From the NCBI RefSeq assembly GCF_014842995.1, contig NZ_JACYXL010000002.1:1-64000 (forward strand): DNA of 64,000 nucleotides, written 5' to 3'. Origin of the DNA: Rhodanobacter sp. 7MK24 (GTDB taxonomy: Bacteria; Pseudomonadota; Gammaproteobacteria; Xanthomonadales; Rhodanobacteraceae). The notes under the pieces are model-generated. The model saw only the letters and a program-made list of their open reading frames with translations, had not been told where the DNA came from and did no database searches. This document shows, one piece after another, positions 376 through 13,692 of this stretch (position 1 is its first letter; each line of letters begins with the position of its first letter). The translations under genes and the position numbers were made by a program.

Positions 376-1338
376 TCACTCCCCCTGGGCAGCTTCTCTC
401 TTGAGGAGACGCGCCGATGGGCGCCCGGCCGACGCCACAATCAATTCGGTCGTGATGCACTCGGTTCCATTCGCAATCGCCGCAAGCGCCGCATTCTTGA
501 TGCGGGCGACGATATTCCCCAGTACACCCTTGCCTACCTTGGCCAGGGCGGAGACTTTGTCTGGCGAACCCAAATTTGAGGGTCTCCGCAAGGGCAGCAA
601 CTGCTCATAGGTCACCAAGAAATTCGCCAGGCTAGCATCCGGTTTCCAGGATGGCATCGCGAACTCTGTAAAGCGTGCAGCAAGGTGGGGATCGCTCCGG
701 AAGCCCTGTCCGGCACGATCCGTGCCGAACGCGAGTATGTGGATACTCAATTCGTTCATCAGCAGCTTGATGCCTTCGAGAGCCCTCAGCTGCTCGCGTT
801 CGCTACCTTGCAAAATGTCCTGAACCTCGTCCAGCACGAGCAATCGACAATCGGCGTCCCGAAGCAAACGCTGCACCAAGAGTTCTCGATCGCTGAGGCG
901 ATGTGAGATGCGTGCCGGACTGCCGAGCTCCTCCATGATGCGACCGTAAACCGAACGTGCATCCCGGGTCCCGGACATGGAAATTTTCAGCACACAAGGT
1001 GCGTCACTTCGGTCGTTGTCGCCGTATCTTTGATGGACCAGCTTAGCGAGGCTTGTCTTTCCGTTTCCCCTGTCGGCACACACGATCAGCCCACGCGCCC
1101 TCGTTTGCCTGGGCTCGTACACCATCCATTCTGCTTCGTTCATCACCTCCAGCAAGGCCGGATACAGAATCTGGCGGTCTTCAATGATTGCTTTCGCACG
1201 GACGTCATTCGGAGCATCGAGCAAGCTTGCTGTCGACGGATGCAGATGACGCCTATCGTTCACCTCGGCTCCCCTTGCATCGTAGAAATCTCCGCCTTGT
1301 TTGTCGCGGCTGGGCATACCTTCAGCGGTAGCGTTCAT
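376..1338 (-). CDS. tnsC: TnsC/TniB-like AAA+ transposition ATPase
   Basis: This 320-residue AAA+ ATPase has a Walker A-like loop ADRGNGKT (residues 88-95) and Walker B LLVLDEVQD (166-174), as in TniB/TnsC proteins that link target recognition to the transposase. The ATG at 1338 lies inside the last codons of the preceding tnsB part (17-base overlap), and tniQ follows 4 bases after the stop. The gene order tnsA-tnsB-tnsC-tniQ is that of Tn7-like elements. The length is intermediate between TniB (about 300) and Tn7 TnsC (555). The protein appears intact. Confidence 0.85.
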   Translation of the reverse strand: MNATAEGMPSRDKQGGDFYDARGAEVNDRRHLHPSTASLLDAPNDVRAKAIIEDRQILYPALLEVMNEAEWMVYEPRQTRARGLIVCADRGNGKTSLAKLVHQRYGDNDRSDAPCVLKISMSGTRDARSVYGRIMEELGSPARISHRLSDRELLVQRLLRDADCRLLVLDEVQDILQGSEREQLRALEGIKLLMNELSIHILAFGTDRAGQGFRSDPHLAARFTEFAMPSWKPDASLANFLVTYEQLLPLRRPSNLGSPDKVSALAKVGKGVLGNIVARIKNAALAAIANGTECITTELIVASAGRPSARLLKREAAQGE

Positions 1339-1873
1339 TTTCGAATTCCTCTATGTCATAGGCTTGCGGGCGGTAGTCGCGCAGCTGCTGCTCGACGTCG
1401 CGAAGATTCACAGTGGCGGGCTCAGGCTTGGCAGACGGCGTAGGTTCGCTGCGGTACCGATCACCCGCCGCCTCCGTGGCCTTTCGTCTACGGATTCGCC
1501 TTGATGCTTTTGCCTGCTCGACAAGGGCGTCTGCTCGTTTCTGACTGGCGTCAGCCAACGCCACAAGCTCGGGCGACCTCGACAACGATCTCTCGTGGAA
1601 GCGCCTGACCTGCCATTCCGCAAGCGAGATCGGTTGAATGTCTGGCGTCGTCACAAGAGCCTTCACGAGCAAGCCGCCGGGCGTACGCACGAAGACATGA
1701 GTGATGTCTCGTGGGTCGTAATGGACGTGCACGTTCAGGTGTTGACCTACCCACGGCACCAACTCATCGCTCCAGTACTGAAGTGAGTGAATCTGCACAC
1801 CAGTACGGGTCAGACGACGCGCGTCGCCTGGCAGAAATGTGGCAAGGAACTCAAGTTCATTGAGCGGCTGCAT
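1322..1873 (-). CDS. tnsB: TnsB C-terminal part (Mu-transposase C-terminal barrel) as a separate frame
   Basis: This 183-residue frame resembles the beta-barrel and C-terminal tail of Mu/TnsB transposases (for example LPGDARRLTRTGVQI and VHVHYDPRDITHVFV) that normally follow the catalytic domain in one polypeptide. Its ATG at 1873 sits inside the last codons of the catalytic frame, which stops at 1857, in the +1 frame relative to it. The basic segment near residue 125 and the tail could contact TnsC, as the TnsB C-terminus does in Tn7. It may be a naturally split subunit, a +1 frameshift product, or a broken gene. Confidence 0.7.
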   Translation of the reverse strand: MQPLNELEFLATFLPGDARRLTRTGVQIHSLQYWSDELVPWVGQHLNVHVHYDPRDITHVFVRTPGGLLVKALVTTPDIQPISLAEWQVRRFHERSLSRSPELVALADASQKRADALVEQAKASRRIRRRKATEAAGDRYRSEPTPSAKPEPATVNLRDVEQQLRDYRPQAYDIEEFENERYR

Positions 1874-3146
1874 CGTCGCCCTCCGCAGCCCTCTTCCACA
1901 TTTCGATAGGTGGAATACGGATCATCCGGTGCTCGTTCACGTGATACCGTCCGAGCAACTGCTCGACGAACCACGTCCTCGCTTGACGCAGCGTCAACAC
2001 GGCATGCTTCGCACTGTCGTATTCGCCTTTCGCCTTGACGGAGTTCTTTGTCGTGCCTGGAAGAAGGTGGCACTGCCCTACCATGGTTCCGATCAGACGT
2101 TCGATGGATCCGCCGTAGTGTGGTGAACCCACAGGCCGGTAACAGAGGACGATTCCATGCTCCATGCACCCGCGCTTGAATGCGGCGGAGACGAAATCCT
2201 TCCCGTTGTCCACCACGATTTCACGTGGAAGACCCTGCATCGGCCAGTCAAGCGGCACACCAAACTCTGCAGCAGGCACCTTGGGCAGAACCGCATGAGT
2301 CAGGCACAAAGCAACTGACAAGATTGAAGGTGGCTCGAACCCAATATGGATGCCAAGGATGCATCGCGTGTAGACGTCGATAGCAACTGTCAACCAAGGG
2401 CGACCGATGTAATCGCAGTACGGATCATCGGATCGAACCATCACATCCATCGGCGTGTGATCGATTTCGACACGCTCAAGGCGTGCGGACACTTTCACAT
2501 GCCCGGGCATCGCTTCGTAAAGGTACTTTGCCTTTTTTGATCCTATCCGACGCCGCTGTGCGGCCCGTGTCTCATAATTGCGCACACGCTTTGCCACCGT
2601 AGCTCTTGTCGGCGGCTGAAGGCTCTGTTCCCGACAAGCCACCGCTATGCGCTCATGCAGTGCCGTCACCGTCGGCCGCTCAGGTTGCAAGTAGTAGCTA
2701 TCGATCTTCTCCGCGATAACGCGCTCGACGCCTGGATCCAAGACCGTCGTTCCTGCCTTGCGCCCTGGCGCCTGCCTGATCAGGCCGCTCACCGTTTCAT
2801 GCAGCTTGTAGTCGCTGACAAGCCGCCAGAACTGGCGCTCACTGATACCCAGTGCAGAAGCCTGCTTCTGTGCCTCTGCAGTGCGCCCTGATTTCTTGCT
2901 CAGCAACAGGCGGATCGCTCCTGCGCGAGTGTCAGCCGGATCCCACTGGCCTGATGGAACGGCAGCAACATCCGTCTTTCCAAGCACATCTTCCGGATCT
3001 GCCATGGGGAGCAATTCCCGGCGCTTGACCGTGAGCTTGGTTCCCTCCATGTCGATGACGGCGGCGTCGTGGAATATCAGCTCAATCACTTTGACGACCG
3101 CACCACGGTAAAACGCCATCCTCTGTGGTCGAAGCTCAGGTGCCAT
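1857..3146 (-). CDS. tnsB: TnsB DDE transposase, catalytic part
   Basis: This 429-residue protein has an N-terminal helix-turn-helix region followed by an RNase H-fold integrase core. The candidate triad is D229 (VEIDHTP), D313 (VVDNGKD) and E349 (PHYGGSIER). The D313-E349 spacing matches a DD(35)E arrangement. It would join transposon ends to target DNA. The start at ATG 3146 overlaps the end of tnsA by 11 bases. The frame ends after the region GRYHVNEHRMIRIPPIEMW, exactly where related TnsB proteins continue into the C-terminal barrel; that part is encoded in the next frame. Together the two parts make about 612 residues. Confidence 0.85.
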   Translation of the reverse strand: MAPELRPQRMAFYRGAVVKVIELIFHDAAVIDMEGTKLTVKRRELLPMADPEDVLGKTDVAAVPSGQWDPADTRAGAIRLLLSKKSGRTAEAQKQASALGISERQFWRLVSDYKLHETVSGLIRQAPGRKAGTTVLDPGVERVIAEKIDSYYLQPERPTVTALHERIAVACREQSLQPPTRATVAKRVRNYETRAAQRRRIGSKKAKYLYEAMPGHVKVSARLERVEIDHTPMDVMVRSDDPYCDYIGRPWLTVAIDVYTRCILGIHIGFEPPSILSVALCLTHAVLPKVPAAEFGVPLDWPMQGLPREIVVDNGKDFVSAAFKRGCMEHGIVLCYRPVGSPHYGGSIERLIGTMVGQCHLLPGTTKNSVKAKGEYDSAKHAVLTLRQARTWFVEQLLGRYHVNEHRMIRIPPIEMWKRAAEGDDAAAQ

Positions 3147-3654
3147 GACGCACCTGCCGGTCAAGCACGAGGGAATCCAGATCGGTAATCAGGACGACAG
3201 GGTGTCCCGTAGCTTCCGACAGCGCGGCGAAACGTCGCGACAGTCGGTCACGGATCTTCAGGGCCTCAAAGTAGGGCTTAACCTCGACGTAGGTTCGACT
3301 GCCAAACCCAAGCTCAGCCAGAGCGAATGGGACGCTATGCAAGCGAACCATAAAGTCGGGTGTGTATGACCGCGCTTTCCCATCCTCGCGGTATGTCACC
3401 GTCACAGGCTGACTAGCAACGCGGATCAACTCGCTATAGCCAGTCAGCGCATCAATCACGCGCCGCTCCAGTTGTGATTCGAACCCAACCGCATCATGCC
3501 CAAGTCGAACAGGGTGCCAACCACGGACATGCCGGCTACGGGATAGAGGAATCACACGGTGATCGTGCTTGACCTCCAGGATGCTGTAAGGCGATGCAAC
3601 ACGGTCTTCCGCTAGATAGGATCGGAGCGCGTGTACTCGACGTATATGAAACAT
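3136..3654 (-). CDS. tnsA: TnsA-like transposon endonuclease
   Basis: This 172-residue protein has the TnsA restriction-endonuclease-like core: E59 in GFESQLE, D100 in YTPDF and E124-V-K126 in YVEVKP. In Tn7, TnsA makes the 5' cuts that allow cut-and-paste transposition. ATG 3654 is preceded by GAGGA eight bases upstream. The stop overlaps the start of tnsB, so this is the first gene of the tnsABC operon. It is shorter than E. coli Tn7 TnsA (273 residues) and lacks the winged-helix C-terminal domain, as do many TnsA homologues of other Tn7-like families. Confidence 0.85.
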   Translation of the reverse strand: MFHIRRVHALRSYLAEDRVASPYSILEVKHDHRVIPLSRSRHVRGWHPVRLGHDAVGFESQLERRVIDALTGYSELIRVASQPVTVTYREDGKARSYTPDFMVRLHSVPFALAELGFGSRTYVEVKPYFEALKIRDRLSRRFAALSEATGHPVVLITDLDSLVLDRQVRHGT

Positions 3655-3821
3655 GCTGTTTTCCTCAGTTTTAGAGCCGCTATGCGGCAAGAACTGAGGC
3701 CCACGCCTTGCGAGATTTCCGGCAAACCTCACCCGCAACACGGCCGCTTGACGACTGCGCAGGGGTATGAAATGCTGGGGATGTCAGGACGCCAATCCGA
3801 CACCAGTCCGCTAGGACAACC

Positions 3822-3855
3822 GAGGCTCGCAGATGTTTGCCCATCTGCGGGCCTC
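3822..3855. repeat. Imperfect inverted repeat upstream of tnsA
   Basis: GAGGCTCGCAGATG and CATCTGCGGGCCTC can pair over 14 positions with one G-T, around the loop TTTGCC. It lies about 170 bases upstream of the tnsA start. It could be a terminator for rightward transcription, an operator, or part of the transposon end. No T-run follows on either strand, which argues against a classical intrinsic terminator. Confidence 0.5.
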
Positions 3856-3956
3856 TGTCGTTCAGGGCCTCTCGAATTTAAAGCTGACAGCTAATCGTTC
3901 TTTCTCCTCCTCTGTGTTCGACGTGATCGTCTGATTACGGTGGCATAGCGGCGCGC

Positions 3957-4232
3957 TTACCCTTCCGGATGACCTTGAGCCACTTCGGCACGAGCCTCCG
4001 TGCGAGCTATCCACGCTGCCACATCCTTCGTACTCGCGAACCGCGGCTGGCGCCCCTCCTGCAAGAATGTGGTCACCGGCACGCGCTTGTGCATCACCGC
4101 CTGTCGGAAAGCCGCCCCCGTGCTGTAGCCCAGCAAAAGGCGCAGAGCGCTTCCGCCCACGAAAGGACCGTATTTGGCGAACAACTTCTCTTCGAGTTCG
4201 GCTTGCCGCTGGGCTAGATGGTGCGTGCTCAT
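3957..4232 (-). CDS. Small putative DNA-binding protein
   Basis: This 91-residue protein begins at ATG 4232, preceded by GAGGGA at good spacing. An N-terminal charged helix is followed by a segment around ALRLLLGYSTGAAFRQAV and a basic wing-like stretch ending FASTKDVAAWIA. This layout recalls small winged-helix or excisionase-like proteins of integrative elements. No specific function can be assigned. It lies between tnsA and a 19-bp tandem repeat just upstream of its own start, so it may regulate itself or the tns operon. Confidence 0.6.
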   Translation of the reverse strand: MSTHHLAQRQAELEEKLFAKYGPFVGGSALRLLLGYSTGAAFRQAVMHKRVPVTTFLQEGRQPRFASTKDVAAWIARTEARAEVAQGHPEG

Positions 4233-4240
4233 GGAGTTCC

Positions 4241-4278
4241 CTCGCTCTGTAGGCGTGATCTCGTTCTGTAGGCGTAAT
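4241..4278. repeat. 19-bp tandem direct repeat next to the small DNA-binding gene
   Basis: CTCGCTCTGTAGGCGTGAT is followed directly by CTCGTTCTGTAGGCGTAAT (two differences). A partial third copy, CTAGGCGTGATC, lies at 4338-4349. The first copy begins 9 bases upstream of the minus-strand start at 4232. Such spacing suits an operator for the adjacent gene, or transposase-binding repeats. Confidence 0.65.
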
Positions 4279-4306
4279 CCTCCCTCAGGTATGCCCCACA
4301 TCGGTA

Positions 4307-4332
4307 GGTAAGGTTTTATGCAAAACCTTACC
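4307..4332. repeat. Perfect 11-bp inverted repeat
   Basis: GGTAAGGTTTT (4307-4317) and AAAACCTTACC (4322-4332) are perfect complements around ATGC. The element sits between the divergent genes at 4232 and 4385, beside the 19-bp direct repeats. It could be an operator. There is no T-run outside the stem, so intrinsic termination is unlikely. Confidence 0.7.
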
Positions 4333-4384
4333 CGTGACTAGGCGTGATCAGTAAGATCAGCAAGTCCCGCCCAGCACCCACTTC

Positions 4385-5305
4385 ATGCCACCTACTGCAC
4401 GACGATGGACCAAGGAAGTCAGGCTGCTTCGGGCACGCGCCGCTTTCGCCGACATTGCCGTCGCAGCGAACGGAATCTGGCAGCCAAAGCGGCTAGAAGA
4501 GGTGGTACTCAGCAAGCACCCGAGCCGATCTTTCGTTGAAGCCTCAAACAAGTTCGGCAAGATGGCCAGAGATGGATTTGTTCCTGACAGCGCAACCATT
4601 CAAGCCGTAACGGCAGCCTTCCCGAACTGCAACATCCGGTACTGGCTGGATCATCCGCTGTTCTATCTTCTGGACGCCAACCAGGACAGGCAAGCGGCCC
4701 TGAACTACGCCCTCGATAGCATTCCGGGTGCTCTACGTACGGAGCTGTGGCGTGAACCGATCGACTTTGAACCCTGGACAGGAAAGACACTTCGCCCGTT
4801 GGACGGCGTGCCCCTGTTTGCCTTGCTACGCGGCACCCTTACCCAACACTTGGCTTGCCTCGATGAGAGAGACCACATCCAGTTCGTTGAGACGGGCATC
4901 GAACGCACCCCGGAGGCTGCCGATAAGCTCGACAGGAAGAAGCAGCAACTCACTCGAGACATGCTGCGACTGGAGCAGCCCGGCCAACTCGATCACCTGG
5001 ATGCGCTGACCCTGATCACCGCCTTAGCCAAGTACGCTCAGGACATCCAAGAAGCACGCGCCTTTGAGTTGGCCTCCCTGATGCTGCGGTCACTATTTCC
5101 CAAAGCAATCGCCTACCACCCGCAGCTACTTTTCAGCGTAAAGTTGATCTCGAAACTGTTCTACGAACAGATCTGGGCGCCTGCAAACCATGCGTTCTCC
5201 GTTGCCACGCGATACGGCGCTGATCCAGACAGACTTGCGGAAGACGCCATAGAGTCTGCTGCGCTTCTTGGACAGATCTGTCCGCCCGATCAATACATCC
5301 GCTAG
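4385..5305 (+). CDS. Hypothetical protein, element cargo
   Basis: This 306-residue soluble protein has no family I recognise. The N-terminus is basic (PPTARRWTKEVRLLRARAAF) and the middle contains the conserved-looking phrase NIRYWLDHPLFYLLD. The C-terminal half is predicted helical with several long amphipathic segments. There is no signal peptide or membrane segment. ATG 4385 has no good ribosome-binding site, so the start is uncertain. It is transcribed away from the tns genes and followed within 50 bases by a small zinc-ribbon gene, with which it may form an operon. Confidence 0.65.
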   Translation: MPPTARRWTKEVRLLRARAAFADIAVAANGIWQPKRLEEVVLSKHPSRSFVEASNKFGKMARDGFVPDSATIQAVTAAFPNCNIRYWLDHPLFYLLDANQDRQAALNYALDSIPGALRTELWREPIDFEPWTGKTLRPLDGVPLFALLRGTLTQHLACLDERDHIQFVETGIERTPEAADKLDRKKQQLTRDMLRLEQPGQLDHLDALTLITALAKYAQDIQEARAFELASLMLRSLFPKAIAYHPQLLFSVKLISKLFYEQIWAPANHAFSVATRYGADPDRLAEDAIESAALLGQICPPDQYIR

Positions 5306-5355
5306 GCACAATGGACTGCTGCCGAAGACAATCACTACGGTCTAGGAGGTTCGCC

Positions 5356-5574
5356 ATGTCACATCACCTTGGAACGTATTCCGACTGGCGAACCATTGCA
5401 CCGGTGGATCATTGCCCTCGGTGCGGAGGGACACATCTGCGATCACGGGATTGCCCAACGGGTCTGGAAGTCGAGTGTGCAAGCGGCTGCGGCTATCGTG
5501 AAGTGCTCGCCGATTTCACCCGTGAGGACTTCGACCGGTGGATGCAACGCGTGCGCTCGCAGCGCACTTCGTGA
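5356..5574 (+). CDS. Small zinc-ribbon protein
   Basis: This 72-residue protein starts at ATG 5356 behind a perfect AGGAGG (5344-5349). It contains CPRCGG and, further on, C-x(5)-C-x(3)-C (DCPTGLEVECASGCGY), a treble-cysteine ribbon like those of the restriction-alleviation (Lar-like) family. The C-terminal tail is basic and aromatic. That family is found on phages and mobile elements. An anti-restriction role is only a suggestion from the fold. Confidence 0.65.
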   Translation: MSHHLGTYSDWRTIAPVDHCPRCGGTHLRSRDCPTGLEVECASGCGYREVLADFTREDFDRWMQRVRSQRTS

Positions 5575-5716
5575 TGCCCAGTCCCTGTCCACGCTCACCC
5601 CATAGACGTACACCCATGTGGCTATGTGATCATGATAGGCTCATGACGTGATCCGCCCTCCTTTCCACCACGAGCGAATACCGACGAGCAGCTGAAGCAT
5701 GCTCGTTCGTTGATTC

Positions 5717-5815
5717 GCCCCCGTGGCCGAGAGGTTAGGCGTCCGGCTTATATCCGGATAAAGGCAGTGGCCAGATAAGCCACCCATGCAGGTTCGAGTC
5801 CTGCCGGGGGCACCA
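5717..5815 (+). tRNA. Class II tRNA with anticodon UAU and a 29-nt variable region
   Basis: The cloverleaf is complete. The 7-bp acceptor is GCCCCCG/CGGGGGC, position 73 is A and CCA is encoded (5813-5815). The D arm is GCC/GGC with GG in the loop. The anticodon stem is TCCGG/CCGGA with the 7-base loop CTTATAT, and the T arm is GCAGG/CCTGC with loop TTCGAGT. U33 at 5748 fixes the anticodon as TAT (5749-5751), which reads the isoleucine codon AUA. The variable region (5759-5787) forms a GTGGC/GCCAC stem and is longer than in usual Leu or Ser tRNAs. The D arm is Ser-like, but A73 is the Leu/Tyr/Ile discriminator, so amino-acid identity is unclear. Confidence 0.85.
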
Positions 5816-5830
5816 ATCCCAGGTGCCCGT

Positions 5831-6220
5831 ATGAATCCTGAAAATTCACGACGACTGCAGTCGGACTTCCCGCAGCTGTACCGATCGCAGAGGCTCGATC
5901 CTCTTCGCCAGGATCAGCCCACCGTGCTCGCGCTCTGGGGCTTCGAGTGCGGTGATGGCTGGATGGACTTGATCTATCGCCTTAGCCAAGCCATCTCCAA
6001 GCGCATCGAATCCACCGGGCTGGACATCGTCGCGACGCAGGTGAAGGAGAAGTTCGGCACGCTGCGGTTCTATGTCGATGGCGGGGATGAAGAAGTTTTC
6101 CGGCTCATCGATTCTGCCGAACAAGAGTCGGCAACGATTTGCGAGGCATGTGGTGCACCTGGCACCCTTGTCACGAAGGGGTGGCATTCGACGCTCTGCG
6201 AATGCTGCAGGCGTGCCTGA
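5831..6220 (+). CDS. Conserved hypothetical protein with C-terminal zinc ribbon
   Basis: This 129-residue protein starts at ATG 5831, only 15 bases after the tRNA CCA end. The core phrase VKEKFGTLRFYVDGG is followed by CEACG and, about 20 residues on, CECC, giving a four-cysteine zinc site. I recall this layout from uncharacterised proteins of phages and genomic islands, with no assigned function. No ribosome-binding site stands out. Co-transcription with the tRNA is possible from the spacing. Confidence 0.7.
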   Translation: MNPENSRRLQSDFPQLYRSQRLDPLRQDQPTVLALWGFECGDGWMDLIYRLSQAISKRIESTGLDIVATQVKEKFGTLRFYVDGGDEEVFRLIDSAEQESATICEACGAPGTLVTKGWHSTLCECCRRA

Positions 6221-6460
6221 TAATTCTTTGGTTTTGTTGCGCGCGAGCGTGACATGCCGTCTCCGTAGGAAGGCCGGGCGTAGACACAGGAGCGCAGCTA
6301 TTTCCTTAGGCAGCCAAGAGCTTCATGCCTGCGGCCAGAGCTATTGGGACAAGGCCTTGAACGACTTGTCGTGCCGTCGACGTGGTGGAGCAGCCCTCAA
6401 ATCGCAAGCAGGGACTGGTTCGTGCGAGACTGCACATTCTCGATCAAAAGATGCCCGACC

Positions 6461-7303
6461 ATGGCGCTTCCGTATGCAACGACGAGTCAGGCCGCAGCCT
6501 ACGCCGACTATGACTGGGTAGCCGTTTTGCTTTTTAGACGGTTGACGGCCAATTATACGGTGGCGACCTTGCCTCCCCGCATCCCCTTCTCCCTAGATGA
6601 TGTTCGAGATGCAGCGGAAGAAGCGTTACGAGACGGGCTTTTGAAGAAAGGCAAAATTCGAAACATCGCCGACATCAAGTATTCCTACGATGCACGGCGC
6701 GATTTCCCTGCAGAGATGATGCAGGCGTTTCCGATCACTTGGCTGTCATCTGGCAAGGGTCAATACTTCTTTAGAAAGACCATTCGAAAGAACATCATCG
6801 ATCTGCAATCGATTTGTTCTCCTCTGCCCCAGCTTGAGTACGTTGTCGACCAGACGCCGATATTTAACTCGAAGCTCATGGGGAAAGACGAACAAGCCGT
6901 TTTTGCTCGGGCCCGATATGCTGGAATATTCAATCAGATACTTGGCTTCCAAGCCAACCCAGTTCAGGGACATCACCGAACGAGTGTCGGGTACGGGCAG
7001 GTGGAGGTGGACGAGGTTCAAGCCGGGCTTGAGGGACAGCTCGGCGTAATTGTCCCGATTTCCGGAAAGGGTGGACAGGACAGGCTCTCGTGGTCGCAAG
7101 TACTGAACCTCAACACCTATGGGGCAGCGTGCTTAGCACGATACGGCAAGATCCAACCCCCTCTTACTGGTGCCAAGGTGCGAAGCCTGTGCCTATGGAT
7201 GGACAAGGTGACCGCTGAGATTTGGGTCGTCGAGTTCTCTGACCAGCACAGCGACATCGATTTGATCGATATCGTTCAGGTGCGCCGATTCAAGTTCGTT
7301 TGA
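6461..7303 (+). CDS. Probable type II restriction endonuclease
   Basis: This 280-residue protein lies convergent with a cytosine-5 methyltransferase and overlaps its end by 14 bases. The segment QVEVDEVQAGLEGQLGVIVP followed by ISGKGGQD has acidic residues 15-20 residues before a Lys, as in PD-(D/E)xK nucleases. I recall this pattern from uncharacterised proteins paired with Dcm-type methyltransferases. The frame is open upstream to ATG 6344. ATG 6461 (MALPYATT) is preferred because the upstream residues look non-coding. Cleavage specificity cannot be read from sequence. Confidence 0.6.
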   Translation: MALPYATTSQAAAYADYDWVAVLLFRRLTANYTVATLPPRIPFSLDDVRDAAEEALRDGLLKKGKIRNIADIKYSYDARRDFPAEMMQAFPITWLSSGKGQYFFRKTIRKNIIDLQSICSPLPQLEYVVDQTPIFNSKLMGKDEQAVFARARYAGIFNQILGFQANPVQGHHRTSVGYGQVEVDEVQAGLEGQLGVIVPISGKGGQDRLSWSQVLNLNTYGAACLARYGKIQPPLTGAKVRSLCLWMDKVTAEIWVVEFSDQHSDIDLIDIVQVRRFKFV

Positions 7304-8603
7304 CACGAGTTGCTTCAATCTCTTGCTGGGTCCGCTTCTTAGCTCCACTCTTTCTGTTCCTTCGGCCAATTGGCGTCGTGATTCCCCAATACGCCGAAGC
7401 GTCGCTCATGGTCATCCGAAGCAATACCTGGTTGCTAAGTTCCAATACCTTTTCTGGCTTGGTTGGGACTGCGCCCATCGCTTTGAGGACCGCCCCGGCT
7501 ACTGCCCGCCCTAGCGGCGGCGGCACTGCGTTCCCAATTTGTCGAGCACCATGCCATTTCGTTTCATGAAATCGGAACCAGTCGGGAAAACCATGTAGCC
7601 TTGCCATTTCCCGTACGGTGACGCAACGATCATGTTTGTAGTGGATCGGTCGGGGACTTGTGAAAGCACCTCTCGCAGAGTCAGTGCCCGCCCGTAGGGT
7701 GTTAGATACGCCCTTGATCGGTAGCTTGAAGAACCTGGAAATGGGTTCGACGCTTCCAGGTTTTGTCTCCGAGAATCGGCGGCGGGAAACTTCCGTATGA
7801 TCCGTTCTGAGACTTGCGGTCAGTAGTTCAGGATTCCATTCGCGCCTATAGCCGAATACCCATCCTGAATTGTCGACGCAGCGCATGAGGCGTGCATATG
7901 CACTCGGCTTGCCCCATTTTTTGGTTTCAACCTCGTCGCTGTCTAGAAGTCGCTTAAACCCCTCGGCGTCTGGCAAATCACTGAGTGCATCGTGACAGGT
8001 CGGTGCGCTCGGTAGACCGTTAACTTTACCTGGCTTTCCCGTGATGGCGTCGGGATATTCGGGGACTTTGCGCCCTTTCTTTGCACCCATGAGGAAGAGG
8101 CGTTGACGATCTTGGGGTACTCCGTAGTTGTACGCGTTGAGTACCCGCCACTCATTTCGAACCTGATAGCCGTTGCGGGTGAACTCGGCGATCAGCTCTT
8201 CGAGAAACTTGCGATGCTTGCCAAGCGTCAATCCCTTGACGTTCTCGAAAACGAAATAGTCCGCATCCAACTCGTGCACGATACGCACAAAGTCCTTCAC
8301 CAAGGAGTTGCGCGGATCGTCCAGTATCCGCTGCCCTATCAACGAAAACCCCTGGCATGGCGCTCCGCCAAACACCACGTCGACCTTCTTCTTGCCGATA
8401 CCGGCCAACTTCCTGATTTGAGCACCTGTGAGATCTTTGACCGACTTGGGGATCACACGGCAATGAGGGAAGTTGAATTTGTGGATCGCCGCGTGAACGG
8501 GATCAATTTCGACTGCTGCCGCAACGTCGAAGCCCGCCTGTTCGAAGCCAAGACTCAGGCCGCCAGCTCCTGCGAAGAGGTCGATTCCGATAGGTCTTGC
8601 CAT
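7290..8603 (-). CDS. DNA cytosine-5 methyltransferase
   Basis: This 437-residue C5 methyltransferase shows motif I DLFAGAGGLSLGFE (8-21), the catalytic GGAPCQGF loop with C83, ENV (120-122), the QDRQR motif and a C-terminal GNAVPPPLGRAV (motif X). It methylates C5 of cytosine within an unknown site. The frame extends to an upstream TTG at 8633, so a slightly longer protein is possible. It belongs to a module with vsr upstream and a probable restriction enzyme converging on its 3' end. Vsr proteins usually accompany methyltransferases whose product is prone to T:G mismatches. Confidence 0.93.
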   Translation of the reverse strand: MARPIGIDLFAGAGGLSLGFEQAGFDVAAAVEIDPVHAAIHKFNFPHCRVIPKSVKDLTGAQIRKLAGIGKKKVDVVFGGAPCQGFSLIGQRILDDPRNSLVKDFVRIVHELDADYFVFENVKGLTLGKHRKFLEELIAEFTRNGYQVRNEWRVLNAYNYGVPQDRQRLFLMGAKKGRKVPEYPDAITGKPGKVNGLPSAPTCHDALSDLPDAEGFKRLLDSDEVETKKWGKPSAYARLMRCVDNSGWVFGYRREWNPELLTASLRTDHTEVSRRRFSETKPGSVEPISRFFKLPIKGVSNTLRAGTDSARGAFTSPRPIHYKHDRCVTVREMARLHGFPDWFRFHETKWHGARQIGNAVPPPLGRAVAGAVLKAMGAVPTKPEKVLELSNQVLLRMTMSDASAYWGITTPIGRRNRKSGAKKRTQQEIEATRVKRT

Positions 8604-8736
8604 GTTCCGTGCACGTTCGGTGGTTTCGGTCAAAGGTTAACGCAGGTTCGCCAAAAAGTCGATCGGAATCAATCCGGCGTCCCTGAGTGATTTGTAGCCG
8701 AATCCAGTCGCACTTCGTGAGATAAAAGAGCTGGCA

Positions 8737-9144
8737 TTAGTCGTTCGCAACGACAGCCCTGTAGAGCCTCTCCAGTCGGGACGGGCCAATCTTGCACTGC
8801 CACACCACAAGCACGCGCCAGCCCATTCTCCGAAGCCGTGTCTCGACTCGTCGATCCCTCGTCTTGTTCGCAGCGATTTTGGTGCGCCAGTAGACACTTC
8901 GCGTCTTTGGGATCCGTGCTTTGGCGCACCCAACGTGTCCATGCCAGAAGCACCCATGGACGAACACCGCAACTTTGCGGCTCTTGAATGCCAAGTCGGG
9001 CTTGCCAGGAAGGCTGGAATCGTTGAGTACGTATCGAAGCCCGCGCACATGCAAGTACCTGCGAACCGCAAGTTCGGGCTTGGTGTCGCGTCCCCGTATA
9101 CGCGACATCAAGGCACTACGCGCTTTCGCATCTAAAAAGTCCAT
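8737..9144 (-). CDS. vsr: Very short patch repair endonuclease
   Basis: This 135-residue Vsr protein nicks beside T:G mismatches left by deamination of 5-methylcytosine. It shows MSRIRGRDTKPELAVRRYL, then LPGKPDLAF with the catalytic Asp and VFVHGCFWHGH with the zinc and active-site His/Cys residues, all at the usual spacing. It sits about 130 bases upstream of the methyltransferase on the same strand, so the two are probably co-transcribed. Length and motifs are normal. Confidence 0.93.
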   Translation of the reverse strand: MDFLDAKARSALMSRIRGRDTKPELAVRRYLHVRGLRYVLNDSSLPGKPDLAFKSRKVAVFVHGCFWHGHVGCAKARIPKTRSVYWRTKIAANKTRDRRVETRLRRMGWRVLVVWQCKIGPSRLERLYRAVVAND

Positions 9145-9621: not shown

Positions 9622-12600
9622 TCAATCTCTTGGCGTGAATTCCGAATCGTCCTGCTCATCCATGATCCTCCCCTCTTCAACTTGCCTCTCGATGTCGCAC
9701 ATGGCGCTCTCTCGTACGCGCTGATACAGCTTGTAGGCAGGGTCGAAGCGACCCATGCTTTCCATGAGCTTAGTGGCTTCGTCACGCACCATGAGATCAC
9801 GCGGGAATGGCTTGCCCGGAAGTCCATGTCTCACACCCGAGACTGATGATGCGTAGAGAGCACTTGACACTTGTTCCAAAGCATCATCACTCACGAACTT
9901 GGCTGTACGCAGCAGGTCGCGTACGAAGTTGCTGTTCGTAAAAATGAAGTCGTATGGCACTTCGCGTAGCACACATGTCAGCACATCTATTTCAATCTGC
10001 GTGGCGCTCGACGCCAGGCCCAGCACGAGCCCGCGCAATGACTCGCTCAGTGTGCCGAACAGGAACTTGATGAAGTCGCCAAACCACGGAAGGACACTGC
10101 TGCCAGCCTCTTCCAGCTCCACGGCCCACTGAAACAATTCACGAAGAAGGCGATCTGTGTGGGGAGTGACGGCAAGATCAGAGCTAACTTCGTTCGTCGC
10201 ACCCCACGGTATCGGGCGGTAAGTCCAATCTTCTCGCCTGGTGGCGTGAAACATGCGCGCCTTTAAGAACTGGATGCCCATGTCTCGACGACTGTTCAAC
10301 ACCTTCTTCAAAAACGCGAGAATCCAGTAATCACCGATGTCTCTGCGGCCCTCCAATTTTTCGAGCAAAACCCTGATGTGCTCTTCAGTCAATCGATGGA
10401 ATGGAACCTGATCATTGCCACTGAGCCACATCAGGTAGTCATGCGTCGCTTCCGGTGAGGCGTCGAACTCTGCAGCGACTACCAACTCCACCGCCAAGTC
10501 GTAGTCTTTCCTGGCAATGGTAAAGAGCGCAGAAGCCACAGTCCTGTGAACCATGGGGTCCACGGACAACGCCAGCCTCTTGAGGATCTGACGATCTTCG
10601 TCGGTGTAGTCATCCGTCGGCTGATGGCGACAGTAGGCTTCCGCCACAGCCCGTATGTATCGCTGATCGTCAGATGCCAAAAGTGTCTGGATCATTGCAT
10701 AGGCATCTTCCGGCGCAGCGCGCATCAATGCTGCCAAAGCGATACCTACGTGCGGAAGGATCAGCGGATCCGGAGTGTTACAAGGCCTCGCGTGATCAAG
10801 CAACAGACGAGCAAATGATGTGGAAATCTCAACAAGTTGCTGTAGCAGCAGTTGGGAGGATGCATCGCTCGTCTTCGATGCTTGGATTTCCCCTAAACAT
10901 TCGCGCAAGAACGCATAAAGCGCTTCGGGGTCAGTGAACTGTTGCAGTAGATCTTGTGCGAATGCCTGGAGACTTTGGAGGTTTTCTTGCCAGCTGTCCC
11001 CGCCAAGGGGCGCAGTCAGGTGCCCCCAACCATCCAACAGCTTGAGAATCGTACGCGACCTTAGATCTTTGCCGGGAAAGGCCATGATCTTTTCAGCCAA
11101 TGCCCTTTGCTCGTCGGTTCCATGCTGCGCATGCCAGCGTACGTTGGAGGCCAGCTTGATAGCCACAGTGGCGGGAACAGCTCCTGTCTCAACCTTTTCT
11201 AGAAGGTCGTGCAGGGTTTGCAAGAAATCGCCATCCCAGCTCTTCTGGGTTGCCTGATCGACTTTCGCCCCGAACAGCCCCACCGGAAACCGCAAGGCGC
11301 CGCCCAGCACCTGAGCCGCTTTGATAGCGTGTGAAACATCCGAATCTGACAGAAGGCGGATGCACGCATCAATCACTTGACGCCGTAGGCGAGCCATTCC
11401 TTCTGGAGAAACGAAGAACGTCCGCATGCGGATCTCACGATTGTTTCCCTCGGTTGTATGTCCCTCTGTCGCCAATACTCCAGTCAAAAACTCCAACGGC
11501 GTGTGCGCACCTGTCCAGGCTTTCGGGTAACGCAGGAGCTCCAGTCCATATGCCACGACTTGCTCTATGTATCCGATCGGTTTTCCCGGCATAGGAGATG
11601 CCATTTCGGAGAGCACGCGGATGCCATGGGACGGCTGTTGATTGGTTGACTGCGTGTCGTTCTGCCCAAGCTGCCAGAGAAGCTCGCATGCCTCGGCCAT
11701 GTGATCGAATTCCTTGCCCATGGAAGCATTGCGCGCGATCTGAGCCAACAACTCGTCTCGCTGCCCTTTCTCGATCACCCGGTGAGCGAATGCCAACGCC
11801 TGCTTGGGTTGGTAGAAAGCAACAGCCGCCGCGGCTCGCAGGTAGCTCTGCCCGACAGGGAAGTCCTTGAGGAGACGCGACCACAGCGGATCCAGAAATT
11901 GACTTCGATCCGTGTCGCCATTCGATCGACGCCAATCCAGTCGTCCCTGGTTGAGAAGAATCTGCTCGGCGTAGCGGTCAGGGACATGATCGAACACATC
12001 TTCGGCGGAGACACCCTGCTCCTCGATGAGGAAATCACCCATCAGATCCGGTATCAGACGACTTTCGTAACCTCGCTTGTAGAGCACACTGGCATCGTGC
12101 AAACGCTTCAAGATTTGCGCTACTTCGTGGCGTGAGATATGCGCGAGACGTGCCAAGCCCTCGATGAGATCAGGATCGCTGTCCCGAATTGGCTGAAGCA
12201 TGGCGATCGCCGCCAGCACCGTCTTGAGCGATGGCTCGTTAAGACCAGAACTGACGCCCGATACGGTCTGGCTAACGATGTGACGAAGGAACTCTCCTCG
12301 GAACTGCGATTCATCACCGAGGAATTGCGCATCCATCACCCCAGATGCAAGAACCTTGGCACCAATGACGGTCGCCAATGGGCAATCACGCGTGTAGGCA
12401 GCGAGGCGTTCGACATGGCGCCGATCACCACCGAACTGACGCAGAGCTCGCTGAGCCAGTCGCTCGCTTTCGTCTTTGTTGAGTGGCGGCAGGGTGATTG
12501 GGATCGAATCTTCGGAGCGCAGCGCGCGGATCTGTTTGTCTACGCGCTGCCGACCATAAGGCCGAAGCGACAAGATCAACCGAGCCTGATGAGATGGGTC

Positions 12601-13692
12601 AGCCACATACTCAGCAAGCCGCCCCAAATCGTCTCTGTCATGAGCATCATCGCTTATCAGAACCTTGGGATCATTGCCAAACGCCTCGAAGTCTTTCGGG
12701 TGTGCTGTGGCATCGCGCGGCAGGAAGAAAACTCGCCTGTCCTTGGATATCGCATCGCACACAGCCTTGAGCAATCGCGTCTTGCCACTACCTCCATTGC
12801 CTATCAGCAACAAGGCGCGACCACCGGGCTCCTCGACAAAGCGCCTGATCACCTCCAGCTCTTTGGATCGACCAACTAGTTCCCACGCATAAGTCCATGG
12901 CTGGACGTTTCCACTTGAGGCTGCCGTCATGCCGGCGAAGAACTCCTCGGGGCGACGCCAAGGTGACGGCTCCAGCTCGCCCAGCAACTGTCGTCGCTGC
13001 CCTGGAAAGTAAACGTCCACCAGTCGCAGTTGGTCGATTCTGTCCAGGTCAAGCCGTGCGCGGCGCGTGATGTCTTCGCGATCCCATAGCTCCCAGCCTT
13101 GGTCGCGATAACTCTTTATTTTCTCGCGAGCCTGCGGGCTGGCAATGCCGCTGAACAGGATGACCTTTTTATCGGCGGGCTCCTTATGGTCCTTAACAAT
13201 CTTGGCTATATGGGTCGGCCCCAAGCTCTTTTGGCGTTTGCATTGATACGTCGTACGCGAGCCATCACCGAAGACGGCGTCAATGTCGAGTCCGTTCTGC
13301 TTGTGACCTTGTGAGCCGTAGCGCGTCACCGTTGCAGCATCGCCATGCAAGCAATCAAGTAGATCCGCACAGAAGCGTTCAAAGGTTTCGTAAGGGAGGG
13401 CATCCACCGGCCACGGCAGATCAAGTCCATAGCGTGACGATGACGGGAGTTCGCCCCCGGAACTACCTTCGGCGTAACCGGCGGCCGAGAGGAGCCGCGC
13501 AGCATCGGTATTGAGAGCAGCGGCCAAGGCGGGAATTTGTGCCGCACGCGGCCGAGACTTTCCTTGCTCCCATCGACTGACGGTCTGCTGGCTGACTCCC
13601 AAGGCTGCCGCCAGTTCGACCTGGCCCGCCATGCCGACGTCGAGACGAGCCTGGATCAGGATCTTTCCGAATTCCACTAGGTGCATACGCAT
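9622..13692 (-). CDS. Giant HTH / Mrr-like nuclease / P-loop NTPase protein (candidate defence protein)
   Basis: This 1,356-residue protein has an N-terminal XRE helix-turn-helix (about 15-60, LGVSQQTVSRWEQGKSRPR). A restriction-endonuclease-like domain follows (about 95-215) with GLDID (D136) and YQCKR (Q150-C-K152), an Mrr-type D...QxK site. Next comes a P-loop NTPase with GNGGSGKT (298-305) and Walker B VLISDDAHD (344-352). A roughly 850-residue helical, repeat-like C-terminus completes it. Nuclease-NTPase-repeat architecture is that of Avs/STAND antiphage proteins, but an added XRE domain at the N-terminus is unusual. Start is ATG 13692 (or 13686), overlapping a 50-bp palindrome. Confidence 0.8.
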   Translation of the reverse strand: MRMHLVEFGKILIQARLDVGMAGQVELAAALGVSQQTVSRWEQGKSRPRAAQIPALAAALNTDAARLLSAAGYAEGSSGGELPSSSRYGLDLPWPVDALPYETFERFCADLLDCLHGDAATVTRYGSQGHKQNGLDIDAVFGDGSRTTYQCKRQKSLGPTHIAKIVKDHKEPADKKVILFSGIASPQAREKIKSYRDQGWELWDREDITRRARLDLDRIDQLRLVDVYFPGQRRQLLGELEPSPWRRPEEFFAGMTAASSGNVQPWTYAWELVGRSKELEVIRRFVEEPGGRALLLIGNGGSGKTRLLKAVCDAISKDRRVFFLPRDATAHPKDFEAFGNDPKVLISDDAHDRDDLGRLAEYVADPSHQARLILSLRPYGRQRVDKQIRALRSEDSIPITLPPLNKDESERLAQRALRQFGGDRRHVERLAAYTRDCPLATVIGAKVLASGVMDAQFLGDESQFRGEFLRHIVSQTVSGVSSGLNEPSLKTVLAAIAMLQPIRDSDPDLIEGLARLAHISRHEVAQILKRLHDASVLYKRGYESRLIPDLMGDFLIEEQGVSAEDVFDHVPDRYAEQILLNQGRLDWRRSNGDTDRSQFLDPLWSRLLKDFPVGQSYLRAAAAVAFYQPKQALAFAHRVIEKGQRDELLAQIARNASMGKEFDHMAEACELLWQLGQNDTQSTNQQPSHGIRVLSEMASPMPGKPIGYIEQVVAYGLELLRYPKAWTGAHTPLEFLTGVLATEGHTTEGNNREIRMRTFFVSPEGMARLRRQVIDACIRLLSDSDVSHAIKAAQVLGGALRFPVGLFGAKVDQATQKSWDGDFLQTLHDLLEKVETGAVPATVAIKLASNVRWHAQHGTDEQRALAEKIMAFPGKDLRSRTILKLLDGWGHLTAPLGGDSWQENLQSLQAFAQDLLQQFTDPEALYAFLRECLGEIQASKTSDASSQLLLQQLVEISTSFARLLLDHARPCNTPDPLILPHVGIALAALMRAAPEDAYAMIQTLLASDDQRYIRAVAEAYCRHQPTDDYTDEDRQILKRLALSVDPMVHRTVASALFTIARKDYDLAVELVVAAEFDASPEATHDYLMWLSGNDQVPFHRLTEEHIRVLLEKLEGRRDIGDYWILAFLKKVLNSRRDMGIQFLKARMFHATRREDWTYRPIPWGATNEVSSDLAVTPHTDRLLRELFQWAVELEEAGSSVLPWFGDFIKFLFGTLSESLRGLVLGLASSATQIEIDVLTCVLREVPYDFIFTNSNFVRDLLRTAKFVSDDALEQVSSALYASSVSGVRHGLPGKPFPRDLMVRDEATKLMESMGRFDPAYKLYQRVRESAMCDIERQVEEGRIMDEQDDSEFTPRD

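What the first reader, a model, noticed from the sequence alone, without database searches (positions are those of the whole stretch)
5717..5815. Mobile-element class II tRNA with anticodon UAU and a 29-nt variable region
The anticodon reads AUA (Ile), yet the tRNA has a long variable arm like Ser/Leu/Tyr, a Ser-like D arm and A73. A normal tRNA-Ile is class I, and AUA is usually read by a lysidine-modified CAU tRNA. This one may misread AUA as Ser or Leu, supply a rare codon, act as a nuclease decoy, or serve as an integration site.
Basis: partly seen in the sequence, partly recalled or inferred. Interest (0 to 1): 0.8.

Follow-up and report, generated by a model that had tools for sequence, protein, structure and literature searches.

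The report
Mobile class II tRNA reading AUA
A bacterial mobile island carries a well-kept but unusual transfer RNA, with the body of a serine/leucine-type tRNA and the anticodon for the rare isoleucine codon AUA, tied to a small protein gene of unknown function; what it is charged with and does is unknown.

Summary
Window 5717-5815 is a real tRNA gene (Rfam 58 bits): 7/5 acceptor branch, encoded CCA, A73, anticodon loop CUUAUAU (UAU), 29-nt variable region. ARAGORN misreads its anticodon. It is no recent anticodon mutation: the genome holds a second copy (95%), and two other genera of the family hold one intact copy each. All four keep the loop CUUAUAY and the cloverleaf; the most distant one (G465) has two-sided changes in three stems. 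Between copies the tRNA is 86-95% identical, the next gene 75-83%, the 120 nt upstream 54-76%. It is rare (6 of 233 family genomes, three with only broken copies) and was found nowhere else in what was searched. The window copy, G445 and G465 lie 1.7-2.0 kb from Tn7-type operons; the second copy lies in a recombinase island.

In all four, a 129-aa protein gene starts 15-16 nt downstream. The tRNA 3' end can pair 7 bp with its ribosome-binding site; the two folds differ by at most 1.3 kcal/mol. Charging is unsettled: host Ser and Leu models score it like a foreign isotype. TilS and a CAU tRNA are present, so it is not needed for AUA. Closest in print: 8/4 allo-tRNA-UAU near transposon genes. 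I favour an element-borne AUA tRNA, unproven.

The parts
5717..5815 (+). class II tRNA gene, anticodon UAU, 29-nt variable region, encoded CCA
   Evidence: Rfam 58 bits; fold; 4 intact copies with all canonical stem pairs kept
5747..5753 (+). anticodon loop CTTATAT (CTTATAC in the other three intact copies)
5759..5787 (+). 29-nt variable region with 5-bp stem GTGGC/GCCAC and loop CAGATAA; one stem pair changes on both sides in G465 (GCGGC/GCCGC)
5685..5705 (+). inverted repeat (arms 5685-5690 and 5700-5705) just upstream; possible hairpins at the same place in the other copies, sequence not conserved
   Evidence: read by eye on the alignment; fold
5808..5828 (+). 7-bp inverted repeat GGGCACC/GGTGCCC linking the tRNA 3' end to the ribosome-binding site of the next gene
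   Evidence: present in 4 of 4 intact copies; 5 bp left in the broken ZG21-1 copy (read)
5831..6220 (+). 129-aa protein (P129), alpha-beta plus C-terminal CxxC...C zinc-ribbon-like end, function unknown
   Evidence: no Pfam, PHROGs, NCBIfam or PADLOC match at E 0.01; AlphaFold2 pLDDT 89.6; 253 viral stretches encode relatives
5356..5574 (+). 72-aa zinc-ribbon protein, faintly like restriction-alleviation protein Lar; travels with the cassette in 3 of 4 intact loci
   Evidence: PF14354 E 0.0019, below its cut-off
3136..3741 (-). TnsA-like endonuclease
   Evidence: PF08722 E 9.7e-5, below cut-off; NF033179 E 6e-10, below cut-off
1322..3164 (-). TnsB-like transposase in two overlapping reading frames (1857-3164 and 1322-1873)
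   Evidence: PF00665 E 1.6e-7 just below cut-off and PF09299 E 6.4e-15 above it; best NCBIfam match IS481 transposase, below cut-off
376..1338 (-). TnsC/TniB AAA ATPase
   Evidence: PF05621 128 bits
138..440 (-). truncated TniQ, next to an IS3-like end at the window's start
   Evidence: PF06527 E 4e-4, below cut-off; the IS3 naming of bases 1-110 is mine from reading the frame

Best explanation
It is a selected, horizontally moving accessory tRNA gene carried in a small cassette (zinc-ribbon gene, tRNA-UAU, P129) in genomic islands of one bacterial family (Rhodanobacteraceae, named from two titled relatives). Shown from sequence: the cassette, its recurrence in mobile settings, the conserved cloverleaf and UAU loop, the encoded CCA, and the 15-16 nt gap to the P129 start codon. 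Inferred: one transcript covers tRNA and P129; RNase P and 3' trimming free the tRNA, and this also releases the P129 ribosome-binding site from the acceptor-strand hairpin. The mature tRNA then reads AUA in element genes. Isoleucine is my first guess for the amino acid (A73, A35-U36-A37, C4-G69, C29-G41 fit Ile identity), leucine the second.
For: Four intact copies in 3 genomes keep every canonical stem pair, with two-sided changes at one pair each in the anticodon, variable and T stems, all three in G465. tRNA 86-95% identical against 75-83% for P129 and 54-76% for the 120 nt upstream. Loop CUUAUAY in all 4. P129 follows in all 4. Sporadic distribution: 1 of 15 genus, 6 of 233 family, 3 of 398 order genomes. 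AUA is 29 of 4725 codons in 14 chosen island frames, 10 of 7903 in 19 chosen core frames. Identity elements compared with PMC9976931.
Against: The host has TilS and a CAU tRNA that I read as tRNA-Ile2, so an extra AUA reader is not needed, and the higher AUA count may only follow the lower G+C (56.8% against 64.1%). The related published 8/4 allo-tRNA-UAU was reported not usable for translation in E. coli (PMC7609411 section 7). The U12 pair and G16 of Ile identity and the A38 of the host's Ile loops are absent. With flanking RNA the free MFE is not the cloverleaf in any of the four copies. The pair-count shuffle control reaches the observed value in 41 of 500. Three of the six genomes hold only broken copies. 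No sigma-70-type promoter in 5300-6350. No expression data.
Confidence: 0.4

Rival explanations
1. Non-translational: the tRNA-like fold is a 5' leader that controls P129. Acceptor stem and the hairpin that covers the P129 ribosome-binding site exclude each other; folding and processing of the tRNA decide whether P129 is made.
For: Perfect 7-bp repeat in 4 of 4 intact copies; forced folds differ by 0 to 1.3 kcal/mol in all four, the hairpin never the worse; P129 starts 15-16 nt after the CCA. GGTGCCC within 20 nt arose in 122 of 200000 base shuffles of the window sequence. [quoted passage not shown]
Against: The repeat does not vary, so there is no covariation; the copies are related, so 4 of 4 is not four events. 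A conserved anticodon loop is not needed for such a leader. P129 relatives elsewhere (80 viral loci, 5 family loci) have no relative of this tRNA nearby and no ARAGORN tRNA directly before the gene.
Confidence: 0.25
2. Missense tRNA: charged by SerRS or LeuRS through its long arm, it puts Ser or Leu at AUA codons.
For: Class II body; C72, C11-G24, G30-C40 and the long arm fit Ser; A73, U8-A14, G18G19 and the long arm fit Leu. Two allo-tRNAs of Silvibacterium inserted Ser in E. coli despite non-Ser anticodons (PMC7609411 section 7).
Against: Ser model 43.6-52.3 bits against 105.4-108.8 for the 4 host Ser; Leu model 47.1-52.2 against 86-103 for the 4 host Leu given. A73 and C2-G71 are against Ser; A15-U48 and A20a of Leu are absent.
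Confidence: 0.12
3. Landing site: the tRNA gene is an attachment site for Tn7-like elements or integrases.
For: Tn7-type operons start 1.7-2.0 kb away in window, G445 and G465; in Dyella a transposon-end-like repeat array begins about 130 bp from the broken copy; fragments in G445 (nt 3-34) and G103 (nt 31-99) break at the anticodon loop. tRNA genes are common att sites of Tn7-like elements (PMC11406308, PMC10293859, passages).
Against: A published insertion lies 30-33 nt downstream of the tRNA end (PMC10293859); here the operons are upstream and the 3' side runs into P129 in all 4 intact copies. No duplicated 3' end in the own genome at E 0.001.
Confidence: 0.13
4. Decaying passenger of islands with no present function.
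For: Broken copies in ZG21-1, Dyella monticola and G103, and a 5' fragment in G445.
Against: The intact copies are more conserved than their neighbours and change in a structure-keeping way.
Confidence: 0.1

Closest known systems
8/4 allo-tRNA-UAU of soil metagenomes and Edaphobacter strain C40 (Mukai et al. 2017, read through the review PMC7609411 section 7)
   Same: long-armed tRNA, UAU anticodon, link to a transposon-related gene, broken copies
   Different: this one is 7/5, not 8/4 or 9/3; a complete cloverleaf in 4 copies; A73; a fixed P129 partner gene. Their sequences could not be compared here
tRNA-Ile3(UAU) of Mycoplasma, Bifidobacterium and others (PMC8450103, passages)
   Same: UAU anticodon reading AUA
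   Different: those stand in place of tRNA-Ile2(CAU); here a CAU tRNA read as Ile2 and TilS are present and the body is class II. That Ile3 is class I is recalled
Phage accessory tRNAs (PMC10264068, passages) and tRNA array units (PMC12803027, search listing)
   Same: tRNA gene on a mobile element
   Different: single gene, not an array; class II body with an Ile anticodon; bound to a protein gene
tRNA-Ser and tRNA-Leu of the host
   Same: class II; Ser-like D arm; Leu-like A73 and C2-G71
   Different: anticodon, 29-nt variable region, low isotype scores

Membership tests
allo-tRNA | 12-bp acceptor branch as 8/4 or 9/3 | tested here: not met
   7/5 in all 4 intact copies; U8 faces C65, and C-1 faces A73
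allo-tRNA | long variable arm | tested here: met
   28-29 nt
allo-tRNA | Ser identity elements (G73, G2-C71, R4-Y69, C72, C11-G24, G30-C40, long arm) | tested here: not met
   4 of 7 present (C72, C11-G24, G30-C40, long arm); list from the table in PMC9976931
allo-tRNA-UAU | UAU anticodon near transposon genes | tested here: met
   for G445 and G465 the transposon naming rests on gene order and weak matches
allo-tRNA-UAU | sequence homology with published members | not testable with these tools
   the 2017 paper is not held under the DOI that I tried from recall and I found no way to an Acidobacteria genome
tRNA-Ile3(UAU) | stands in place of tRNA-Ile2(CAU) and TilS | tested here: not met
   TilS above cut-off; CAU tRNA with Ile2-like body (assignment by recall)
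tRNA-Ser / tRNA-Leu | scores like host isoacceptors on isotype models | tested here: not met
   models from 4 and 5 sequences
tRNA in general | conserved cloverleaf, T loop and CCA end | tested here: met
tRNA in general | expressed, matured and charged | not testable with these tools
   no RNA data
Tn7-like attachment site | insertion just downstream of the tRNA 3' end | tested here: not met
   3' side continues into P129 in all 4 intact copies; published spacing
Tn7-like transposon (window operon) | tnsA, tnsB, tnsC and tniQ in order | tested here: met
   TnsA and TniQ are below cut-off, TniQ is truncated
Tn7-like transposon (window operon) | paired ends with TnsB sites | tested here: inconclusive
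   no repeat array found in 3400-5900 or, by exact 9-mers, in the first 18 kb; the contig begins inside the element

The most novel reading that the evidence does not exclude
A tRNA whose own maturation is the switch for a neighbouring gene: the acceptor strand either closes the cloverleaf or covers the P129 ribosome-binding site, so P129 reports on tRNA folding, 3' processing or cleavage (for instance by an anticodon nuclease), in a mobile cassette that also supplies an AUA-reading tRNA of unusual amino acid identity.
Probability: 0.13. Interest if true: 0.85.

Novelty: new variant of a known kind. Interest (0 to 1): 0.55.

Why it matters
tRNA identity is usually told from body and anticodon together; here they disagree and the disagreement is conserved. 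A compact example with a 7/5 body and a fixed partner gene makes the open question about transposon-linked UAU allo-tRNAs (translation, mistranslation or control RNA) testable. It also shows that a common tRNA finder misses or mislabels such genes.

Tried and rejected
Recent anticodon mutation: rejected, since UAU is shared by all intact copies. Plasmid and phage relatives of the tRNA: none at E 1e-5. A variable-arm pattern in viral contigs gave 3 places, of which 2 lie in ordinary phage tRNA-Leu and 1 in no called tRNA; an acceptor/D-arm pattern gave 1 place in no called tRNA. UAU D-arm pattern: 0 viral contigs, and 1 of 378 order genomes, the own (that sample did not list G445 or G465). Wider covariance search over 349 phylum genomes: 27 with hits at E 1e-6; only the own hits exceed 56 bits, the next is 55.2; of the 29 other places 14 were fetched and all 14 are ordinary Leu or Ser tRNAs, 15 were not looked at. 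That search used stricter filters, so weak relatives may be lost. The single scan of the 84,980-species collection with one exact pattern found 2 places, Dyella monticola and Rhodanobacteraceae ZG21-1, both broken; diverged copies would be missed.

P129 function: no family, no significant PDB sequence relative (best E 0.13), no Foldseek match at E 0.001 (best 0.71). Empty-site search next to G465's island: 3 of 12 genus genomes had a match; I compared only G158's surroundings, which share one 616-bp stretch, so island ends stay undetermined. A palindromic motif near the G445 and G465 operons was not found repeated at a far end (exact search). The alternative pairing GGCUUAU/AUAAGCC between anticodon arm and variable arm exists in all 4 copies, but such a match is not rare by chance and I give it no weight. 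One search forced a mis-registered hairpin; its hairpin energies are discarded and replaced.

Full report
What is there. Rfam's tRNA model matches 5717-5812 with 58 bits, the only RNA family match in the window at gathering thresholds. Folded alone the RNA gives -44.1 kcal/mol; 2 of 200 shuffles fold as well. Parsed by hand: acceptor GCCCCCG/CGGGGGC, D stem GCC/GGC, anticodon stem UCCGG/CCGGA, loop CUUAUAU, a variable region of 29 nt with stem GUGGC/GCCAC, T arm GCAGG-UUCGAGU-CCUGC, A73, encoded CCA.

Relatives. The own genome holds a second copy at 95% identity on another contig, and a third, partial match that is the ordinary tRNA-Arg(UCU). None of the other 14 genomes of the genus has it. 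In the family, 6 of 233 genomes have a match: the own (two intact copies), G445 (intact, 92% to the second copy), G465 (intact, 86%), G505, taken as Rhodanobacteraceae ZG21-1 from the identical stretch in L013 (broken acceptor), G306, taken as Dyella monticola from the identical stretch in L012 (shortened D arm), and G103 (3' 68 nt only). In the order sample it was 3 of 398, in the class sample 1 of 369. These samples overlap, and the order and class searches scored at most two candidates per genome, the family search three.

Selection. The four intact copies keep all canonical pairs of the five stems. One pair each in the anticodon stem (U-A to A-U), variable stem (U-A to C-G) and T stem (C-G to U-A) is changed on both sides, all three in G465. 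The counter sees two of them, because MAFFT puts a gap at the anticodon-stem pair; its shuffle control reaches the observed values in 41 of 500, so with four sequences this is support, not proof. The two extra pairs at the base of the variable arm are not both kept in G445. tRNA identity between copies is 86.0-94.9%, P129 coding DNA 75.4-83.1%, the 120 nt upstream 53.5-75.6%. Of the broken copies, ZG21-1 keeps the CTTATAT loop; Dyella and G103 do not.

Setting. Window and second copy share a block of about 860 bp at 79.6% that holds a zinc-ribbon gene, the tRNA and P129. G465 has the same genes with the zinc-ribbon gene after P129; in G445 it was not found. The window copy lies beyond a tnsA-B-C operon with truncated tniQ, followed by a type II restriction-modification set with Vsr and a large HTH/Mrr/STAND protein. 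The G445 and G465 operons resemble each other (29-37%) but showed no similarity to the window's. Their Tn7 nature rests on gene order, an AAA_22 ATPase match in each (G465's below cut-off), a faint TniQ match in G445 (E 0.0073, below cut-off) and similarity of G465's fourth gene to Dyella's TniQ (26% over 106 residues, E 4e-5). Against it: G465's fourth gene matches no Pfam family, and their TnsA- and TnsB-like proteins match nothing significant. So I call them Tn7-type with caution. The second copy lies 4.4 kb from three recombinase-like genes; only one has a faint integrase match (E 0.0035, below cut-off). Tn7-like elements carry defence genes and nested elements as cargo (PMC8649781, passages).

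P129. It has no known family at E 0.01. A scan found 253 viral stretches with relatives, of which the best 80 were kept. Of these 80, 7 have an ARAGORN tRNA within the fetched flanks, none directly before the gene. Because ARAGORN misses this tRNA type, I also searched the 80 loci and the 5 more distant family loci with the covariance model of the four copies: 7 matches of 29.9-44 bits, against 115.6-127.7 for the family itself; 6 are at ARAGORN tRNAs and 1 (L109, 29.9 bits, 268 nt before the gene) is not. So P129 is a common mobile-element protein, and the tRNA is an addition found with one tight group of it (72-83% protein identity). A confident model (pLDDT 89.6) finds no PDB fold at E 0.001.

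Link between tRNA and P129. The tRNA ends 15-16 nt before the start codon. GGGCACC at its 3' end and GGTGCCC downstream are perfect complements in the 4 intact copies. GGTG lies where a Shine-Dalgarno sequence should be. With the acceptor stem forced, MFEs are -50.7, -47.4, -48.1 and -49.7 kcal/mol; with the hairpin forced, -51.8, -48.5, -49.4 and -49.7 (window, second copy, G445, G465). Without constraint the precursor's MFE is not the full cloverleaf in any of the four, and in G445 the acceptor-forced fold also rearranges the anticodon arm. This speaks for the leader idea or against easy tRNA folding, and ignores tertiary contacts and modification. Because the arms do not vary, it is suggestive only.

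Amino acid. Against PMC9976931 (section 11 in full, other passages): Ser has 4 of 7 listed elements; Leu has A73, U8-A14 (from a table row that I saw cut), G18G19 and the long arm but not A15-U48 or A20a; Ile has A73, A35-U36, an A37 that could carry t6A, C4-G69 and C29-G41 but not the U12 pair or G16. Position numbers are my hand assignment. Covariance models from 4 host Ser and 5 host Leu tRNAs score the four copies 43.6-52.3 and 47.1-52.2 bits; the same models give 37.3-65.1 (Ser model) and 11.5-51.7 (Leu model) to other host isotypes. These models rest on few sequences.

Need for it. The genome has TilS above the family cut-off (177.7 bits, cut-off 93.6) and a CAU tRNA with an Ile2-like body (my reading). 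AUA makes up 29 of 4725 codons in 14 chosen island frames and 10 of 7903 in 19 chosen core frames; I chose the frames by hand, and base composition may explain the difference.

What is known. A review (PMC7609411, section 7 read in full) says that UAU is among the commonest anticodons of 8/4 allo-tRNAs, that a UAU group was the most abundant in soil and sediment metagenomes, that a broken copy in Edaphobacter strain C40 overlaps a transposon-related frame, that these could not be used for translation in E. [quoted passage not shown] The original 2017 paper was not held under the DOI that I tried from recall. Five full-text searches for related descriptions showed no 7/5 class II UAU tRNA in the titles and abstract starts that I saw (one of them found no paper); I read passages or sections of three of the listed papers, so this is not proof of absence from print.

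Verdict. A real, selected, mobile and unusual tRNA. New variant of a known kind rather than a new kind; function open between accessory AUA tRNA, control leader and missense tRNA.

Noticed in passing
L062:12614-12645 (G445) and L064:9653-9720 (G103): Two tRNA fragments break at the anticodon loop from opposite sides (5' nt 3-34 and 3' nt 31-99), the second fused into an SseB-like frame (name mine); this looks like recombination in the anticodon loop.
   Followed up: partly
window 42267-44576 (-): 769-aa AAA_13 ATPase matching the PADLOC candidate defence family PDC-S06 (453 bits), with a weaker match to anticodon nuclease PrrC over residues 516-600 only; a possible tRNA-targeting defence gene in the same window.
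   Followed up: no
window 6344-9144: Type II restriction-like protein, cytosine methyltransferase and Vsr nickase next to the cassette.
   Followed up: no
window 9622-13692 (-): 1356-aa protein with HTH, Mrr-like nuclease and STAND-type NTPase domains, possibly an uncharacterised defence protein.
   Followed up: no
L012:1624-1800 (Dyella monticola; L007:1720-1896): Six copies of a 17-nt repeat (spacing 22-55 nt) starting about 130 bp from the broken tRNA, like a Tn7-type transposon end.
   Followed up: partly
L182:834-2321 and L178 (G465): G465's operon ends in a tniQ-like gene and meets what look like core genes zipA and smc after about 260 bp (the two names are mine from reading), so that end of the element may be close to the tniQ-like gene.
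   Followed up: partly
window 5356-5574: The zinc-ribbon protein resembles restriction-alleviation protein Lar only faintly (E 0.0019, below cut-off); an anti-restriction role would fit the neighbourhood.
   Followed up: no
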